The notes beneath the pieces are model-generated. The model saw nothing but the letters and a program-made list of their open reading frames with translations. It was not told where the DNA came from and ran no database searches. From Bacteroidales bacterium (lineage in GTDB: Bacteria; Bacteroidota; Bacteroidia; Bacteroidales; TTA-H9): DNA of 64,000 bases. This document shows positions 23,433 through 35,545 of this stretch, piece by piece. Made by a program: the position numbers and the translations under genes. The number at the start of each line of letters is the position of its first letter. Positions within the stretch are counted from its first letter, which is position 1. The stretch covers positions 1 to 64,000 of the forward strand of contig JAUSOY010000070.1 in assembly GCA_030656615.1 (NCBI GenBank), in the 5' to 3' direction.

Positions 23433-24248
23433 ATGGAGCATCATCGATCGTTAATACTTAAGGCCTGGGAAGATAGATCCCTTTTAAATCAAACGGACAT
23501 TATCGATGCCATTCAGCAGGTCATTGCTGCTTTGGATGCCGGCCGGATTCGGGTCGCTGAAAAGATTGAAGGAGAATGGCAGGTAAACGAATGGATAAAA
23601 AAAGCAGTTTTATTGTATTTTCCGATTTGCAAGATGGAAGTTACAGAAGCGGGAATTCTTGAGTTTCATGATAAAATTCCATTGAAAAGAAATTATGGAA
23701 AGCTTGGAATACGTGTAGTACCTCATGCCGTTTCGCGATTCGGTTCATATATCGCTCCCGGAGTTGTGCTGATGCCTTCCTATGTAAATATCGGTGCTTA
23801 TGTTGATTCGGGAACCATGGTCGATACCTGGGCTACCGTTGGATCTTGTGCACAAATTGGTAAGAATGTCCACCTGAGCGGTGGCGTTGGTATCGGTGGC
23901 GTTCTGGAACCTGTTCAGGCCAGCCCGGTTATTATCGAAGATGGTTGTTTTATTGGTTCACGCTGCATTGTTGTGGAGGGTGTTCATATTGGTGAAGAAG
24001 CCGTTTTGGGAGCCAATGTTGTACTGACCTCATCCACTAAAATATTTGATGTAAGTACCGAAAAAGAAATAATGTATACAGGATATATACCTCCCCGTTC
24101 GGTTGTTATTCCCGGTTCGGTGCCAAAAAAATTCTCTGCCGGAATATATCAGGTGCCTTGTGCCTTGATCATCGGCAAACGGAAACCTTCAACCGATCTT
24201 AAAACATCACTCAACGAAACTCTGCGCGAATTTGATGTGGCCGTCTAA
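23433..24248 (+). CDS. dapD: Tetrahydrodipicolinate N-succinyltransferase
   Basis: Succinylates tetrahydrodipicolinate in the succinylase route to meso-diaminopimelate and lysine. The 271 residues have an N-terminal helical domain (to about 100) and then a left-handed beta-helix of hexapeptide repeats (VLMPSYVNIGAYVDSG through GVHIGEEAVLGANVVLTSSTKIFDV), with the family's MVDTWATVGSCAQIGKNVHLSGGVGIGGVLEP. The end, DLKTSLNETLREFDVAV, is normal. The start is set by the promoter (see previous entry). The next gene overlaps its 3' end by about 17 bp. dapF lies at 51924-52715. Confidence 0.95.
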   Translation: MEHHRSLILKAWEDRSLLNQTDIIDAIQQVIAALDAGRIRVAEKIEGEWQVNEWIKKAVLLYFPICKMEVTEAGILEFHDKIPLKRNYGKLGIRVVPHAVSRFGSYIAPGVVLMPSYVNIGAYVDSGTMVDTWATVGSCAQIGKNVHLSGGVGIGGVLEPVQASPVIIEDGCFIGSRCIVVEGVHIGEEAVLGANVVLTSSTKIFDVSTEKEIMYTGYIPPRSVVIPGSVPKKFSAGIYQVPCALIIGKRKPSTDLKTSLNETLREFDVAV

Positions 24249-25272
24249 TTTCAATACAAGAAACTTGAAAAGTGTACTTATCATACAAACGGCATCCATG
24301 GGCGATGTTATCTTGTCAACGGGATTATTGGAGAGCATTCACAAGGCTTATCCTGATGTGCAAATCGATATTCTGATAAAGCAGGGCTATGAAAGTTTAT
24401 TCGAAGGGCATCCTTTTATCCGCTGGGTATATGTATGGGATAAAAAAGCTAAGAAATATAAAAACCTATTGGCCTTGTTATTTACCATTCGGAACAATCG
24501 GTATGATTGGGTGGTAAATCTTCAACGCTTTGCTTCCACAGGTTTGCTGACGGCCTTTAGCAGAGCCGAAGTCAGTTCGGGTTTTAATAAAAATCCTTTC
24601 TCGGTATTCTTCACCCATCGCATCCGGCATACCATCAAACGTGGCGATGTACATGAAATACAACGGAATTTCCGCTTAATTGCAGCCATGTCGGGCGTGG
24701 AATTATCGAATCCGCGACTATATCCCACGGTTCAATCGTATGCAAGACTCTTGCAATATAAAACCCAAGCCTATATTTGTGTGGCTCCAGCCAGCCTGTG
24801 GTATACAAAACAGTATCCAGTCGGGAAATGGATTGAATTTATTAATGCCATTTCTCCCGATTTTTTCGTATATTTATTGGGTTCAACACAGGAAGTTTCT
24901 TTGTGCGATGAAATTGCCCGACAATCGACCCGAATCAATGTGATGAATCTTGCCGGAAAGCTGAGTTTGTTGGATGTAGCAGCGCTGATGCGTGATGCCA
25001 TAATGAATTACGTAAACGATTCGGCACCCATGCATCTGGCATCATCGGTTAATGCGCCAACCACTGCTGTGTTTTGCTCAACAATCCCTGCTTTTGGATT
25101 TGGCCCTCTTTCGGATGTGTCGTATATTATTCAGAATAAAGAAGCCCTGTTATGCCGTCCTTGTGGATTGCACGGACATATGGCTTGTCCCGAAAAGCAT
25201 TTCGACTGTGCCAATGGAATAAGGAAGGAACAATTGCTCAATACCCTAGAAACCAATGAAAATGAATTATGA
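24232..25272 (+). CDS. Glycosyltransferase family 9 (heptosyltransferase-like)
   Basis: The 346-residue GT-B enzyme is related to the ADP-heptose:LPS heptosyltransferases. Features: SVLIIQTASMGDVILSTGLLESI at the N-terminus (donor-side Gly/Asp loop), VNLQRFASTGLLTAF, VAPASLWYTKQYPVGKWIEFI, and MNYVNDSAPMHLASSVNAPTTAVF near the end, the family's NDSGxxHlA motif with SAP in place of SGP. Cys residues at LCRPCGLHGHMACPEKHFDC match the C-rich tail of this family. It probably adds a sugar to lipopolysaccharide core. The start overlaps dapD; a TTG at 24265 just before KSVLIIQ is an alternative. Its 3' end overlaps tsaC by 17 bp. Confidence 0.88.
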   Translation: MMWPSNFNTRNLKSVLIIQTASMGDVILSTGLLESIHKAYPDVQIDILIKQGYESLFEGHPFIRWVYVWDKKAKKYKNLLALLFTIRNNRYDWVVNLQRFASTGLLTAFSRAEVSSGFNKNPFSVFFTHRIRHTIKRGDVHEIQRNFRLIAAMSGVELSNPRLYPTVQSYARLLQYKTQAYICVAPASLWYTKQYPVGKWIEFINAISPDFFVYLLGSTQEVSLCDEIARQSTRINVMNLAGKLSLLDVAALMRDAIMNYVNDSAPMHLASSVNAPTTAVFCSTIPAFGFGPLSDVSYIIQNKEALLCRPCGLHGHMACPEKHFDCANGIRKEQLLNTLETNENEL

Positions 25273-25831
25273 GGATGACATTAGGGAAGCCGTAAAAGCA
25301 ATAAAAAATGGCGGCGTTATTTTGTATCCCACCGATACCATTTGGGGTATTGGATGTGATGCCACCAATGCAAAGGCGGTCGAAAAGGTTTATGCTGCCA
25401 AACATCGCACCGATGGTAAATCGTTGATAATACTCGTCGAAAATGCGGAAATGCTCTTGAAGTATGTCGATTCCGTCCCCCCAACTTCCCTCGATCTGAT
25501 ACTTTCTTATCAGAAGCCCCTCACCGTTATTTATCCACGTTCGAAGAATTTGCCCCGTAATTTACCCGGTACCGATGGAAGTATTGCTATACGAATTCCG
25601 CGCACACAGTTTTGTATGGATTTATTGAAGTTGACCGGTAAACCCATTGTTTCAACCTCAGCCAATATTACCGGTGAACCTGCACCGGTAATGTATAGTA
25701 GAGTTTCGGAAGAAATCCGTGAGAGTGTTGCCTATGCTGTTTTTCATGGCCGTGATGAAATTCGTGAGGCTGTCCCGAGTACCATTATCCGCCTGTATAA
25801 TAATGGCGATTTTGAAACCATACGCGATTGA
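25256..25831 (+). CDS. tsaC: Threonylcarbamoyl-AMP synthase (YrdC/Sua5 type)
   Basis: Makes threonylcarbamoyl-AMP for the t6A37 tRNA modification. The 191 residues show the YrdC pattern: GGVILYPTDTIWGIGCDATN, VEKVYAAKHRTDGKSLIILV (K..R..K substrate motif), KPLTVIYPRSKNLP, GSIAIRIPRTQFCMDLL, and KPIVSTSANITGEPAP. This is the short form without the Sua5 tail. It is the third gene of the overlapping dapD-GT9-tsaC operon; a second ATG two codons in is an alternative start. Confidence 0.93.
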   Translation: MKMNYEDDIREAVKAIKNGGVILYPTDTIWGIGCDATNAKAVEKVYAAKHRTDGKSLIILVENAEMLLKYVDSVPPTSLDLILSYQKPLTVIYPRSKNLPRNLPGTDGSIAIRIPRTQFCMDLLKLTGKPIVSTSANITGEPAPVMYSRVSEEIRESVAYAVFHGRDEIREAVPSTIIRLYNNGDFETIRD

Positions 25832-26171
25832 GGGAAAGGATTTGAATAGTAAATAGTGAAATTACGAATTATCAATTACGAATTACGAGTATTCGAGTGA
25901 ATAGTGAATGGTGAAGGGCAGTAAATTCGCTGTTTAGCTTTCTAAAAGCCTTGTGTGGTTAAGACTACCAATTTGTGCCAAGCATTTTAATACACACAGC
26001 AATTGATTCTGGAAGAACCGGAATACCACTACCGATTTTGGATGAAGAAACCGATAAAACGCAACTTAAAAACTTTTTCTCAAAGGCTTGCGGGAATGAA
26101 AAGGGATTTTCTATATTTGATATTTAATGGAATTGAAGATTTGTATTGAATGAGTTTGTATAATTGAATAC
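25832..26171. repeat. Intergenic spacer with low-complexity repeats and a gene-tail fragment
   Basis: 340 bp. Positions 25860-25920 hold near-tandem AATTACGA/AATAGTGAAT words, common between Bacteroidota genes. From about 25979 an open frame without a start reads IHTAIDSGRTGIPLPIL and ends in a TAA near 26127; this is the C-terminal tail of some enzyme, followed by AT-rich sequence. A degenerate second copy lies at 27080-27190. Confidence 0.5.
26053..26160 (+). repeat. Flanking repeat, left copy (gene-tail fragment)
   Basis: About 108 bp that recurs imperfectly at 27080-27190. Shared blocks include GATAAAACG/GATAAACTG, TTTCTATATTTGATATTTAA, and GGAATTGAAGATTTGTATTG. In this copy the coding tail (FFSKACGNEKGFSIFDI then stop) is intact; the rest of the gene is absent. 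Confidence 0.65.
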
Positions 26172-26564
26172 ATGGATAAATTCCAAAATAAATTCCGAAT
26201 CGCTTCAGCAAGATGGCAAAATTGGGACTACCGATGGGCAGCCGCCTATTTTATTACCATTTGCACCCAAAATCGTGAACATTTTTTTGGCGAAATCGTC
26301 CAGTCAGGGCAGCCCCCGACGGAATGCAAAATGAATTTATCCCCCACTGGAATTATCGCCGATATTATATGGTACGAAATCTCACATCATGCGTATAATG
26401 TTGAATTGGGCGCATTTGTGGTGATGCCAAACCATATTCACGGTATTTTGATATTAAACAAAAATGGTGATCATGACGGTAATACGGATGGGAACAATAT
26501 CGATAATTGTACCCGTAATGATACCGATAATAATGCCGTTGGTACCGTATGTCCCGATGGTTCT

Positions 26565-26592
26565 GTAGGCCCAGGGCATGCCCTGGGCCTAC
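26565..26592. repeat. Perfect 28-bp palindrome inside the RAYT gene
   Basis: GTAGGCCCAGGGCA and its exact reverse complement, with no loop. ATGCCCTGGACCTAC at 26593-26607 repeats its right half with one mismatch. It codes for VGPGHALGLH. RAYT proteins act on REP hairpins, and this looks like such a hairpin captured in frame. Confidence 0.8.
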
Positions 26593-26612
26593 ATGCCCTG
26601 GACCTACGGATG

Positions 26613-26648
26613 ACGCCAACAACGCCAACAACGCCAACAACGCCAACA
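26613..26648 (+). repeat. Tandem 9-bp repeat, four copies
   Basis: ACGCCAACA repeated exactly four times without spacers, coding for Thr-Pro-Thr repeats inside the transposase. Copy number probably varies by slippage. Confidence 0.9.
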
Positions 26649-26888
26649 ATCGGACAAAAACGTTTTCAGAATATTGGTAAAAATTCTGTATCGTCCATTA
26701 TTGGTTCCTACAAATCGGCGGTTTCCAAACACGCCCACCGCCTGGGATTTGTTTTCGAATGGCAGCATCTCTTTCATGACCATGTTATTCGCGATGATGC
26801 AGAATACCAGCGTATTACAAAATATATTTTAACAAATCCTCAAAATTGGACCAACGATAAATTTATGAGGGGTTTCGATAAATTGTAG

Positions 26889-27286
26889 ACTCATGGGTAA
26901 TCGTGACTATTCTGTTTCCTTATTCCTGAAATTCATAAACCGTCCAACAGGCGGGAGTCCATTTATGAATACCGAGATGGTTGTTCTTTTTGTTCTAAAA
27001 ATTGTAATTCCCCCCCGGCTTGAGTGCCTTGGTAAGGGCTGGAATTCTGGTGCTGGTTTTTTTGTGGATAAAATTATGCGATAAACTGCTCTCTAAAAAG
27101 TTTTTTATCAGGGGCTTGCAGAAGGTGCAAAGGAATTTTCTATATTTGATATTTAAAGGAATTGAAGATTTGTATTGTATGAGTTGTGTATATTTTTTTG
27201 AAGCATATTGAATAGCAAAATATTGATTATTAATTTGTTATTGGAATTATTTATACCGACTCGTTACCATGCATTAAAAAACAGCA
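26889..27286. repeat. Spacer after the RAYT with right copy of the flanking repeat
   Basis: 398 bp without an intact gene. Positions 27080-27190 repeat 26053-26160 imperfectly; upstream of this the similarity continues weakly (ATTCTGGTGCTGG beside ATTCTGGAAGAACCGG) but the frame is broken. A short inverted pair TTTATGAAT / ATTCATAAA lies near 26930-26970. The remainder is AT-rich spacer. Confidence 0.55.
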
Positions 27287-27976
27287 ATGAATAAACAGAC
27301 TGCAAAAAGAATTCTAATCATTGTAATATCTGGAATATTAATCTATGGTGGATATTGGATATATGAAATGTATCAATTTGCTAAGGGAGTAAAGGAAGAT
27401 GCACCAAGATTTGTTGAATATTTGCTACAAAACGAAATTCACAATGGCGATATTATTTTCCAAACTTCTACATCAGGACAAAGTAAAGCTATTCAGATTG
27501 CGACAGGTTCAAAATATAGTCACATGGGTATTATTTATAAGCAAGGAAAGGACTTCTTTGTTTACGAATCTGTACAACCTGTAAAACTGACTCCTTTAAA
27601 TGAATGGATTAAGCGTGGAGTGAATGAACATTACATTATTAAGCGGATTAAAAACTCAGAAACCTTATTGACTCCAGAGACTTTAACGAAAATGAAGCAG
27701 ATTGGAGAAAAGTTTTCTGGTAAAGACTATGATTTGTATTTTGAGTGGTCAGATTCAAAAATTTATTGTTCTGAATTGGTTTGGAAAATATACAAAGAGG
27801 CGGTTGGAATTGAAATTGGAGAACTTGAGAAATTAGGTGATTTCAACCTGACTGATAAAGCAGTAAAACAGAAACTTATGGAAAGGTACGGAGACAATAT
27901 ACCGAAAGATGAATTGGTGATTTCTCCTGCATCAATGTTTAATTCAGACCAATTAATTACTGTTTTTAAAAACTGA
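27287..27976 (+). CDS. YiiX/YebB-like NlpC/P60-type cysteine hydrolase
   Basis: The 229-residue protein has one N-terminal membrane helix (residues 9-27) and then a permuted papain-like domain: NGDIIFQTSTSGQSKAIQIATGSKYSHMGIIY with catalytic-type His 79, VYESVQPV, and IYCSELVWKIYKEAVG with Cys 161 as nucleophile. This His-before-Cys order is characteristic of the YiiX (DUF830) family, thought to cleave peptides or amide/lipid-type bonds at the envelope. The substrate is unknown. It probably faces the periplasm, anchored in the inner membrane. The next gene starts 2 bp later, so the two form a pair. Base composition is more AT-rich than the operons around it, as in the left-edge patch. Confidence 0.8.
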   Translation: MNKQTAKRILIIVISGILIYGGYWIYEMYQFAKGVKEDAPRFVEYLLQNEIHNGDIIFQTSTSGQSKAIQIATGSKYSHMGIIYKQGKDFFVYESVQPVKLTPLNEWIKRGVNEHYIIKRIKNSETLLTPETLTKMKQIGEKFSGKDYDLYFEWSDSKIYCSELVWKIYKEAVGIEIGELEKLGDFNLTDKAVKQKLMERYGDNIPKDELVISPASMFNSDQLITVFKN

Positions 27977-27978
27977 TT

Positions 27979-28335
27979 ATGAAAAAATGGATTTTTATAA
28001 TATCAATAACTTTCAATATCATCTTCTTGATTGGTTGGGGGTTGAATAGTTTAAATCAGCCTTCATACCAACTTGGTCGATTAGAAAAAGATATTACTGT
28101 AGGATACTTTATGGGTGATTCTGTATTATTTACTTTACCCAAAGGACTGACTGTAAGAAACTCTTCGGAAAGAGGAATTTCAGCTATCGGACAATTTGAA
28201 AATGAAAGATTTCAGATTGTAATAACGTCAGATGACGAAATGATTAATTATGAATTGCCAAATGATAGTTTGGATTCACATGGAAATTATTATTCTGCTG
28301 ATTTTGATAAATATGGCAATGAGAAAGAGGAATAA
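27979..28335 (+). CDS. Small membrane-anchored protein of unknown function
   Basis: The protein has 118 residues. An N-terminal hydrophobic segment (WIFIISITFNIIFLIGWGL) acts as a signal anchor, followed by a beta-rich domain of about 90 residues (ITVGYFMGDSVLFTLPKGLTVRN, IGQFENERFQIVITSDDE). No family recognised. It starts 2 bp after the YiiX-like gene and is probably its partner, perhaps an inhibitor or accessory subunit; that is inference. The 216 bp after it (28336-28551) hold only AT-rich spacer with AATAATCAAT words near 28516-28555. Confidence 0.6.
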   Translation: MKKWIFIISITFNIIFLIGWGLNSLNQPSYQLGRLEKDITVGYFMGDSVLFTLPKGLTVRNSSERGISAIGQFENERFQIVITSDDEMINYELPNDSLDSHGNYYSADFDKYGNEKEE

Positions 28336-28551
28336 CGCATGGTAACAATGTATAAAAATAATAGCCGAAATAGTAGTAAATTCAAGGATTGTAGCCCGCT
28401 TCAACTTTCTTGTAAATTGACAGCAAAGTGCTTCGAAATCAGCTACAAAAACATATCGCCAAACGTCAACTTAAAACTATTCAAATCAGTACCCCAAAAA
28501 CACTCAATGAAGTAATGCTCTAATAATCAATCCCCAATAATCAATAATCAA

Positions 28552-34517: not shown

Positions 34518-35545
34518 TGAAACATCTATACTCTGTTATCGGTTATGCATTCGCTTTTTTACTGCTGGTTTTATTAAGCACTTCGTGTGTTGTGCAACGT
34601 AAGGTGCAGTTTGATGTGTTAACATCACCGGTAAATGCCTTTCCATCAGATATCAAATCGCTGGTGCTGGTGAACCACGCCATCAAACCGCTGAATGACA
34701 GCTCCGGAACCCAGTATGCGTATCAGAATAAACTGTATTATGATTCTGTAAAGCTTGATACCATGCTGACGATGCTCGCTACGGATGCCCTGGCTGGTAT
34801 TATTTCTTCTGGCGGTAGATATACCCTAATGGCTAATCCGGTAGTCATTCCGAAATATGCTGGATTGGATAAAATTTTATCCTTGTCTTCCGATTCGATA
34901 TTGTATTATTTGAAGGATAGTGGAGCCGATGCGGCGATTATTCTGGATGATGTAAAAACATTCGACTGGTTGTTTTATTATGGTGGCAATGCGGGTCCGG
35001 TTTATATTACACTTGAGACTTATGCTGCTGCTTTTTGGAAGGTTTATCGTATTAAAACCGGTGAACTTCTGGATAATTTTGCATACATGGATACCCTGAC
35101 CTGGACGGTTTCCGATTTTTCGTTTGAGAGTGGCTTTTCACAGATTCCATATCGGAGGGATGCCTTGGCGGATGTGGCTTTTAATGCTGGTGAACGATAC
35201 GCAAAAAGAATCAGTCCGTATCAAAAAACGGTTAAAAGAATTTATTTTGTTGACTCAGACGATCGCATGAAAGAGGCCGAAATATTGGTGAATCAGGGTT
35301 CATGGCTGACTGCTGCCAGAATCTGGAACGAAGTGGCATCCGGAAAGAAAAAAAAGCGTGCATCCATGGCGGCCTTCAATCTGGCCCTGGCTTCCGAAAT
35401 TCAGGGGAATCTGGATATCGCCAGATACTGGATCGATAAGGCTATCGAACTTAAATTTGATGCGATATATCAGAAATACAGGTCTATACTGTATAAACGT
35501 CAAGCAGATGTGGAATCCATGAAGCAAAACAGTGGTGTCTGGTAA
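34517..35545 (+). CDS. DUF6340-like lipoprotein with TPR-like tail
   Basis: I start at the ATG at 34517, which overlaps the TGA of the glycosidase by 1 bp (TGATG), giving 342 residues. A hydrophobic leader ends in LLSTSC (lipidated Cys 24). The body has FPSDIKSLVLVNHAI, a repeated GADAAIILDDVKTF strand and KVYRIKTGELLDNFAYMDTLTW. The C-terminal 100 residues are TPR-like (AEILVNQGSWLTAARIWNEVASG and AFNLALASEIQGNLDIARYWIDKAIEL). This order matches Bacteroidota lipoproteins labelled DUF6340; no reaction is known. Coupling to the glycosidase suggests a shared role at the outer membrane. Confidence 0.7.
   Translation: MKHLYSVIGYAFAFLLLVLLSTSCVVQRKVQFDVLTSPVNAFPSDIKSLVLVNHAIKPLNDSSGTQYAYQNKLYYDSVKLDTMLTMLATDALAGIISSGGRYTLMANPVVIPKYAGLDKILSLSSDSILYYLKDSGADAAIILDDVKTFDWLFYYGGNAGPVYITLETYAAAFWKVYRIKTGELLDNFAYMDTLTWTVSDFSFESGFSQIPYRRDALADVAFNAGERYAKRISPYQKTVKRIYFVDSDDRMKEAEILVNQGSWLTAARIWNEVASGKKKKRASMAAFNLALASEIQGNLDIARYWIDKAIELKFDAIYQKYRSILYKRQADVESMKQNSGVW

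What the first reader, a model, noticed from the sequence alone, without database searches (positions are those of the whole stretch)
26172..26888. RAYT transposase with its own REP-like palindrome inside the gene
Between the HUH and Tyr motifs lies a 63-residue insertion coded by a perfect 28-bp palindrome, a partial repeat of its right half, and four exact 9-bp repeats. RAYTs recognise REP hairpins, so an in-frame hairpin could be a binding site inside the gene (self-regulation or self-mobilisation), or a REP that inserted into its own enzyme without breaking it.
Basis: partly seen in the sequence, partly recalled or inferred. Interest (0 to 1): 0.55.

Follow-up and report, generated by a model that had tools for sequence, protein, structure and literature searches.

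The report
Transposase gene carrying its own REP
A bacterial REP-handling transposase gene contains, in frame, the very kind of DNA hairpin that its enzyme family recognises; the arrangement is already known for this subclass, but this copy is perfect and is the only one found in its genome.

Summary
ORF 26172-26888 is a RAYT/TnpAREP enzyme with a perfect GTAG...CTAC palindrome (26565-26592) in frame between the HUH and Tyr motifs. The arrangement is published: Quentin et al. 2018 report in-frame "double-foot" REPs inside tnpAREP genes of subclass 2.4. So this is a new member of a known kind. Added here: 55 of 65 non-redundant loci, window included, carry a palindrome in this linker (codon-shuffled linkers: 3 of 1300). 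Its inner sequence follows the enzyme tree (12 changes on 47 typed rows, shuffled mean 29.2). Where REP-like palindromes occur in the flanks (20 of the 55), they match the in-gene one in 17 (shuffled mean 5.3). It behaves as REP DNA, not as conserved protein. By the search patterns used, the in-gene copy is the only one in this genome; 3 of 10 other genomes with an in-gene copy also have in-gene copies only. The model puts the insert in a disordered loop. Best reading: a resident cognate REP inherited with its enzyme, kept perfect partly by template switching. Binding, cutting and function are untested.

The parts
26172..26888 (+). RAYT / TnpAREP (REP-associated tyrosine transposase) gene, 238 aa
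   Evidence: NCBIfam NF047646 55.4 bits (below its cut-off of 80), two stretches; no Pfam match; profile of 22 relatives matches PDB 4er8 TnpAREP, E 1.1e-7; the model's best PDB match is 4er8
26430..26441 (+). HUH motif N-H-I-H (residues 87-90)
   Evidence: H88 and H90 invariant in the 22-sequence alignment
26463..26645 (+). variable linker between the two conserved halves, 61 codons, predicted disordered
   Evidence: pLDDT below 50 for residues 101-117 and 124-167
26565..26592 (.). perfect 28-bp double-foot REP palindrome GTAG...CTAC (30 bp with one more pair, 26564-26593); read in frame as V-G-P-G-H-A-L-G-L
   Evidence: only place found in the genome
26592..26606 (+). partial tandem repeat of the right half of the palindrome (15-bp period, one change)
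   Evidence: further half copies also in 14 of the other 54 loci with a linker palindrome
26613..26648 (+). four exact 9-bp repeats ACGCCAACA (Thr-Pro rich linker)
26760..26765 (+). conserved W197-Q198
   Evidence: invariant in the 22-sequence alignment; WQ is a subclass 2.4 motif
26823..26840 (+). catalytic Tyr motif Y218-I-L-T-N222-P
   Evidence: Y218 and N222 invariant in the 22-sequence alignment

Best explanation
The gene is a RAYT of TnpAREP subclass 2.4 (Bertels group 4). It carries its own cognate double-foot REP, in frame, in a disordered linker that loops out between the HUH strand and the helix before the Tyr. Shown here: a palindrome of REP type sits in the same linker in most sampled relatives; its inner sequence goes with the enzyme clade; and where the gene's flanks hold REP-like palindromes they usually match it. 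Inferred: the palindrome is an old resident that travels with the gene. The enzyme binds and cuts it, or its copies, as single-stranded hairpins, so enzyme and substrate move between genomes as one package and can seed a REP family. Arm perfection is kept partly by template switching between the arms. In the window's genome the package stands without detectable dispersed copies: newly arrived, or its copies were lost.
For: Linker palindromes in 55 of 65 non-redundant loci (52 of 61 without frameshift or stop), 45 with a GTAG foot; codon-shuffled linkers 3 of 1300. Core type follows the enzyme tree: 12 changes on 47 typed rows against shuffled mean 29.2, minimum 24 of 300; with the 8 untyped rows as one more state, 18 changes on 55 rows, not shuffled. 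Frame by type: AGGGCA 11 of 11 and GTTGCA 6 of 6 in frame 0, GCAATG 5 of 5 in frame 1. Of 41 zero-loop palindromes in intact genes, 33 are perfect over 28 bp, in 26 distinct sequences; in the 33 read in frame 0, Val at codon 1 is GTA 31 of 31, Glu at codon 2 GAG 22 of 22, Leu at codon 9 CTA 30 of 30, against 23%, 7% and 8% in the conserved halves of the same genes (rows were chosen for having a palindrome, so this says 'REP DNA', not by itself 'selection'). Flank and in-gene palindromes match in 17 of 20 loci, shuffled mean 5.3, maximum 12 in 2000. 21 of 82 double-foot places in 21 genomes lie inside estimated RAYT spans totalling 30.7 kb. Model: 10-residue blocks of the core 82-97 pLDDT, linker below 50 over most of its length.
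Against: Ten of 65 loci have no linker palindrome of score 10; L056 reads through in frame with a 6-aa linker, so the REP is dispensable. Frame is not fixed in every type: AAGGCA 11 of 13 in frame 0 (one of the other two, L049, is a register effect of its loop), GCGATT 3 to 1. The window's outer stem (GTAGGCCC) is unusual and its palindrome was found in 0 of 394 other phylum genomes (26 bases, up to 2 mismatches) and 0 of 22 named genomes (24 bases, up to 3). Most forks of the tree are weak (37 of 62 open). The Tyr motif is YILTNP, not YIxNNP. No binding or cleavage was tested.
Confidence: 0.6

Rival explanations
1. Neutral scar: REPs land in many places, and the disordered linker is a spot where an in-frame REP is tolerated. 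Perfection is kept by mutation bias (template switching between arms), not by selection, and the hairpin does nothing for the gene.
For: Disordered loop; genes without it read through in frame; 11 of 39 in-gene palindromes with arms of 14 nt or more have perfect arms of 18 nt or more, beyond the foot, as template switching would give (about 0.15 expected if each further pair matched by chance at 1/4; L051 and L053 are near-identical and not independent); intragenic REPs occur in unrelated genes (PMC3733652, passages).
Against: Frame and core type largely follow the enzyme clade; only in-gene copies were found in 4 of 11 genomes that have one; the GTAG foot is nearly fixed while the inner stem varies.
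Confidence: 0.27
2. Autoregulation: the enzyme binds the hairpin in its own gene or mRNA and limits its own expression or copying.
For: A REP-type site in its own coding sequence; both strands fold better than all 200 shuffles.
Against: No expression data; 'autoregul' has no occurrence in PMC8266576; genes without the palindrome exist.
Confidence: 0.1
3. Ancient protein element: the V-x-T-x-H-A-L-S-L peptide is what is conserved, and the palindrome is a by-product.
For: The peptide recurs in many relatives of the window's clade.
Against: Codons at Val 1, Glu 2 and Leu 9 are locked to the palindrome; another clade reads it in a different frame (RDAMHCVST); matching palindromes lie outside the gene.
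Confidence: 0.02

Closest known systems
TnpAREP subclass 2.4 with double-foot REPs inserted in tnpAREP (Quentin et al. 2018, PMC6006769; sections 12 with 13, 31 and search passages read; supplements not seen)
   Same: Double-foot GTAG...CTAC palindrome in frame between HuH and Tyr, variable linker with short repeats, Bacteroidetes and other phyla, predicted peripheral extension
   Different: The window's REP sequence was found in no other genome searched and has no dispersed copies in its own; the Tyr motif is YILTNP, not YIxNNP
E. coli REPtron and TnpAREP (PDB 4er8)
   Same: HUH-Tyr fold; a GTAG-footed hairpin as the expected substrate
   Different: E. coli REPs are imperfect palindromes combined at many loci of the genome (PMC8266576, passages); none inside the gene is described in the passages seen
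Intragenic REPs and Rickettsia palindromic elements in coding genes (PMC3733652, passages)
   Same: Palindromic repeat read in frame as protein
   Different: Those described in the passages sit in other host genes; here the host gene encodes the REP's own presumed enzyme
Coding palindromes in Nematomorpha mitochondrial genes (PMC6649704, start of abstract in a listing)
   Same: Perfect inverted repeats inside coding sequence
   Different: Mitochondrial genes of an animal group; no transposase or REP mentioned in what was seen

Membership tests
RAYT / TnpAREP | HUH plus single Tyr core with Y---NP | tested here: met
   H88, H90, Y218, N222 invariant in 22 sequences; NF047646 55.4 bits, below its cut-off of 80; best solved relative 4er8
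TnpAREP subclass 2.4 | NH[IFV]H and WQ motifs | tested here: met
   NHIH at 87-90, W197-Q198; motifs
TnpAREP subclass 2.4 | Tyr motif YIxNNP | tested here: inconclusive
   The window has YILTNP, one departure; the consensus is YIINNP
TnpAREP subclass 2.4 | variable insertion between beta3 and alphaC holding a double-foot REP | tested here: met
TnpAREP subclass 2.4 | placement in the published subclass tree | not tested
   No reference sequences of the other subclasses were gathered; only a tree of the window's own relatives was built
REPtron | REPs of the same family flank the gene | tested here: not met
   No palindrome of score 10 or more within 1.5 kb either side of the window's gene; in relatives, 20 of 55 have REP-like flank palindromes and 17 of these match
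REP family | many dispersed copies in the host genome | tested here: not met
   One place, plus its own half repeat; assembly 96.84% complete in 90 contigs; decayed copies beyond 3 mismatches would be missed
Active RAYT-REP pair | enzyme binds and cleaves its REP | not testable with these tools
   needs biochemistry

The most novel reading that the evidence does not exclude
Subclass 2.4 RAYTs keep a master copy of their own recognition site inside their coding sequence, under selection, so that enzyme and substrate cannot be separated. The in-gene REP is then the founder of each genome's REP family rather than a stray insertion, and each gene states its own enzyme-site pair. A REP recognition code could be read from sequence alone.
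Probability: 0.3. Interest if true: 0.68.

Novelty: new member of a known kind. Interest (0 to 1): 0.4.

Why it matters
[quoted passage not shown] Where the gene carries its own site, enzyme and site are paired without guesswork. The co-divergence seen here makes the recognition code testable by swapping in-gene REPs between clades. A genome with only the in-gene copy is a clean starting point for asking whether that copy can seed new REPs.

Tried and rejected
Rejected: chance palindrome (codon shuffles); conserved peptide (codon locking and a second reading frame); a high-copy REP family of the host; a REP family shared with the other phylum genomes searched.

Led little further: the direct repeat of about 103 bp that brackets the gene (26065-26165 / 27093-27195, 84%) has only partial matches of about 50 bp at four other places in the genome, and I could not assign it to an element. 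The first cognate test gave 14 of 21 matches, shuffled mean 3.8, 0 of 10000 shuffles reaching it, but counted register shifts as misses. The second (register slack, other filter, 20 loci) was designed after seeing the first and gave 17 of 20. The Pfam Y1_Tnp model finds three other RAYT-like pieces in the genome, two over its cut-off, but not this gene; my guess is that the insert splits the domain. No AU test and no careful tree were run.

Rows dropped: of 88 loci with a match to either half, 6 were duplicate genes and 17 held only one half; 65 remained, the window among them. Eight palindromes of unassigned core type were left out of the shuffled tree count. Palindromes with a loop, and genes with a frameshift (L013, L061, L092) or stop (L078), were left out of the pair and codon counts; some of them stay in the counts. 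In one search, 5 of 26 genomes with matches (G006, G018, G029, G036, G054) were left out because their place lists were cut. The core types were defined by me by eye. RAYT spans were extended by estimate where a match was partial.

Full report
What is there. The ORF 26172-26888 encodes 238 aa. NCBIfam's REP-associated tyrosine transposase model matches at 55.4 bits, below its cut-off of 80, in two stretches. Pfam gives nothing. A profile of 22 sequences matches the solved TnpAREP 4er8 at E 1.1e-7, the only PDB match at 0.01. H88, H90, W197, Q198, Y218 and N222 are invariant in that alignment. The palindrome is perfect over 28 bp at 26565-26592 and over 30 bp with one more pair. A partial copy of its right half and four 9-bp repeats follow.

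Known already. Quentin et al. 2018 (PMC6006769; sections 12 with 13 and 31 and passages) describe TnpAREP subclass 2.4, equal to Bertels group 4: NH[IFV]H, WQ, YIxNNP, abundant in Cyanobacteria and Bacteroidetes and scattered elsewhere. It has double-foot REPs inserted in the tnpAREP genes, in frame, generally between HuH and Tyr. They call this unique to the subclass and judge the variable region a peripheral extension. The window's gene fits on the points tested except one residue of the Tyr motif. It is a new member of a known kind. Searches for other reports were. The paper that I recall as the source of the groups was not held, and supplements could not be opened.

Relatives. The window protein matched in 26 of 60 nearest genomes, its own included, in 53 of 395 class genomes at E 1e-20, its own included, and at 29 loci of a named collection, 22 of them Bacteroidetes by my reading of the record titles. 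After removal of 6 duplicates and 17 one-half loci, 65 remained, window included. Of these, 55 have a palindrome of score 10 or more in the linker, two of them starting 2 bases before it; 45 of the 55 have GTAG at the 14-nt foot. Codon-shuffled linkers have one in 3 of 1300 draws. The ten without include six short linkers (6 to 15 aa: L017, L029, L030, L031, L056, L061) and four long ones (L018, L022, L076, L099). L018 has a GTAG palindrome 173 bp upstream of the HUH end instead. L061 is frameshifted.

DNA, not protein. In 41 intact genes with a zero-loop palindrome, 33 are perfect over 28 bp, in 26 different sequences. The outer four pairs are nearly fixed, and inner pairs show up to four Watson-Crick types. 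In the 33 palindromes read in frame 0, Val at codon 1 is GTA in 31 of 31, Glu at codon 2 is GAG in 22 of 22 and Leu at codon 9 is CTA in 30 of 30. In the conserved halves of the same genes these codons make up 23%, 7% and 8%. The rows were chosen for having a palindrome, so this identifies REP DNA but does not by itself prove selection. The GCAATG type is read in another frame. The peptide looks like a by-product.

Enzyme and palindrome go together. On a quick maximum-likelihood tree of the two conserved halves, with the linker left out, the inner core type needs 12 changes on 47 typed rows; 300 shuffles gave mean 29.2 and minimum 24. Most forks of that tree are weak (37 of 62 open). Frame is uniform in AGGGCA (11 of 11), GTTGCA (6 of 6), AACGCA (4 of 4), GCAAAA (2 of 2) and GCAATG (5 of 5), less so in AAGGCA (11 of 13) and GCGATT (3 of 4). 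REP-like palindromes occur in the flanks of 20 of the 55 loci and match the in-gene one in 17, shuffled mean 5.3, maximum 12 in 2000. An earlier version without register slack gave 14 of 21, shuffled mean 3.8, reached by 0 of 10000. The three misses are L051, L058 and L094.

Where the REPs are. In 21 genomes with complete lists (5 of 26 left out), 82 places fit the double-foot pattern. Of these, 21 lie inside estimated RAYT spans (30.7 kb in all) and 9 within 1.5 kb of one. In 4 of 11 genomes with an in-gene copy, every place found is in-gene: the window's genome, G012, G047 and G055. The pattern misses decayed or footless copies; G012, for example, has a footless palindrome in the flank of L018. 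The window's own palindrome has no other copy in its genome up to 3 mismatches over 26 bases, none in 394 other genomes of the phylum up to 2, and none in 22 named genomes up to 3 over 24 bases. No palindrome of score 10 lies within 1.5 kb of the gene. L058 (Salinimicrobium) has a related palindrome one base shorter.

How it stays perfect. Of 39 in-gene palindromes with loop 0 or 1 and perfect arms of 14 nt or more, 11 have arms of 18 nt or more, although the REP foot is at 14. By chance pairing at 1/4 a step one expects about 0.15; two of the 11 (L051, L053) are near-identical genes. Growth beyond the foot is what replication template switching between arms can produce (quasipalindrome mutations; papers seen only as a listing with abstract starts). 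So perfection by itself is not proof of selection. Extra half copies of the palindrome sit in the linkers of 15 of 55 genes, the window's among them; shuffled halves hit in 9 of 1100.

Structure. AlphaFold2 on 22 sequences gives mean pLDDT 73.0 and pTM 0.65. The two conserved halves run at 82-97 by blocks of ten (residues 21-100 and 171-230), and the linker (101-117, 124-167) and the first 17 residues are below 50. The linker lies between the HUH strand (88-95) and the next helix (173-190). The best PDB match is 4er8, E 7.2e-6, TM 0.58 by target length, rmsd 6.3. The insert is predicted to loop out.

Reading. Shown: an in-frame REP-type palindrome as a common trait of these relatives, enzyme-linked in sequence, and no second copy found in this genome. 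Inferred: that the enzyme recognises it, that it travels with the gene as its substrate, and that it can seed dispersed REPs. The rivals are a tolerated scar kept perfect by mutation bias, and autoregulation. Nothing here separates them fully; clade-wise sharing of frame and core and the genomes with in-gene copies only favour residence with the gene.

Noticed in passing
26065-26165 and 27093-27195: A direct repeat of about 103 bp (84% identical) brackets the RAYT gene, 1.03 kb apart; partial matches of about 50 bp lie at four other places in the genome (contigs C1, C30, C26, C7).
   Followed up: partly
26750-28500: GC drops to 31-36% downstream of the RAYT gene, against 40-45% at 24000-26000; the ORF at 27287-27976 resembles a YiiX-like cysteine-peptidase protein by recall only.
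   Followed up: no
L027 1406-1465; L043 2267-2314; L097 linker; L025 170-219: Very long, perfect or nearly perfect palindromes (48 to 60 bp) inside or near RAYT genes; three have grown around REP-type cores, as template switching could do, while the one in L025 has an unrelated core.
   Followed up: partly
L048 2268-2351: One RAYT gene (Aquiflexum lacus) holds two double-foot REPs of different core types (AACGCA and AGGGCA) in the same linker.
   Followed up: no
L008 1815-1848 (G000:C54, near the RAYT-like match 34710-34898): A second RAYT-like gene piece in the window's genome lies near its own perfect 34-bp palindrome with the core GAGACGCACGGCCGTGCGTCTC, lacking the GTAG foot.
   Followed up: no
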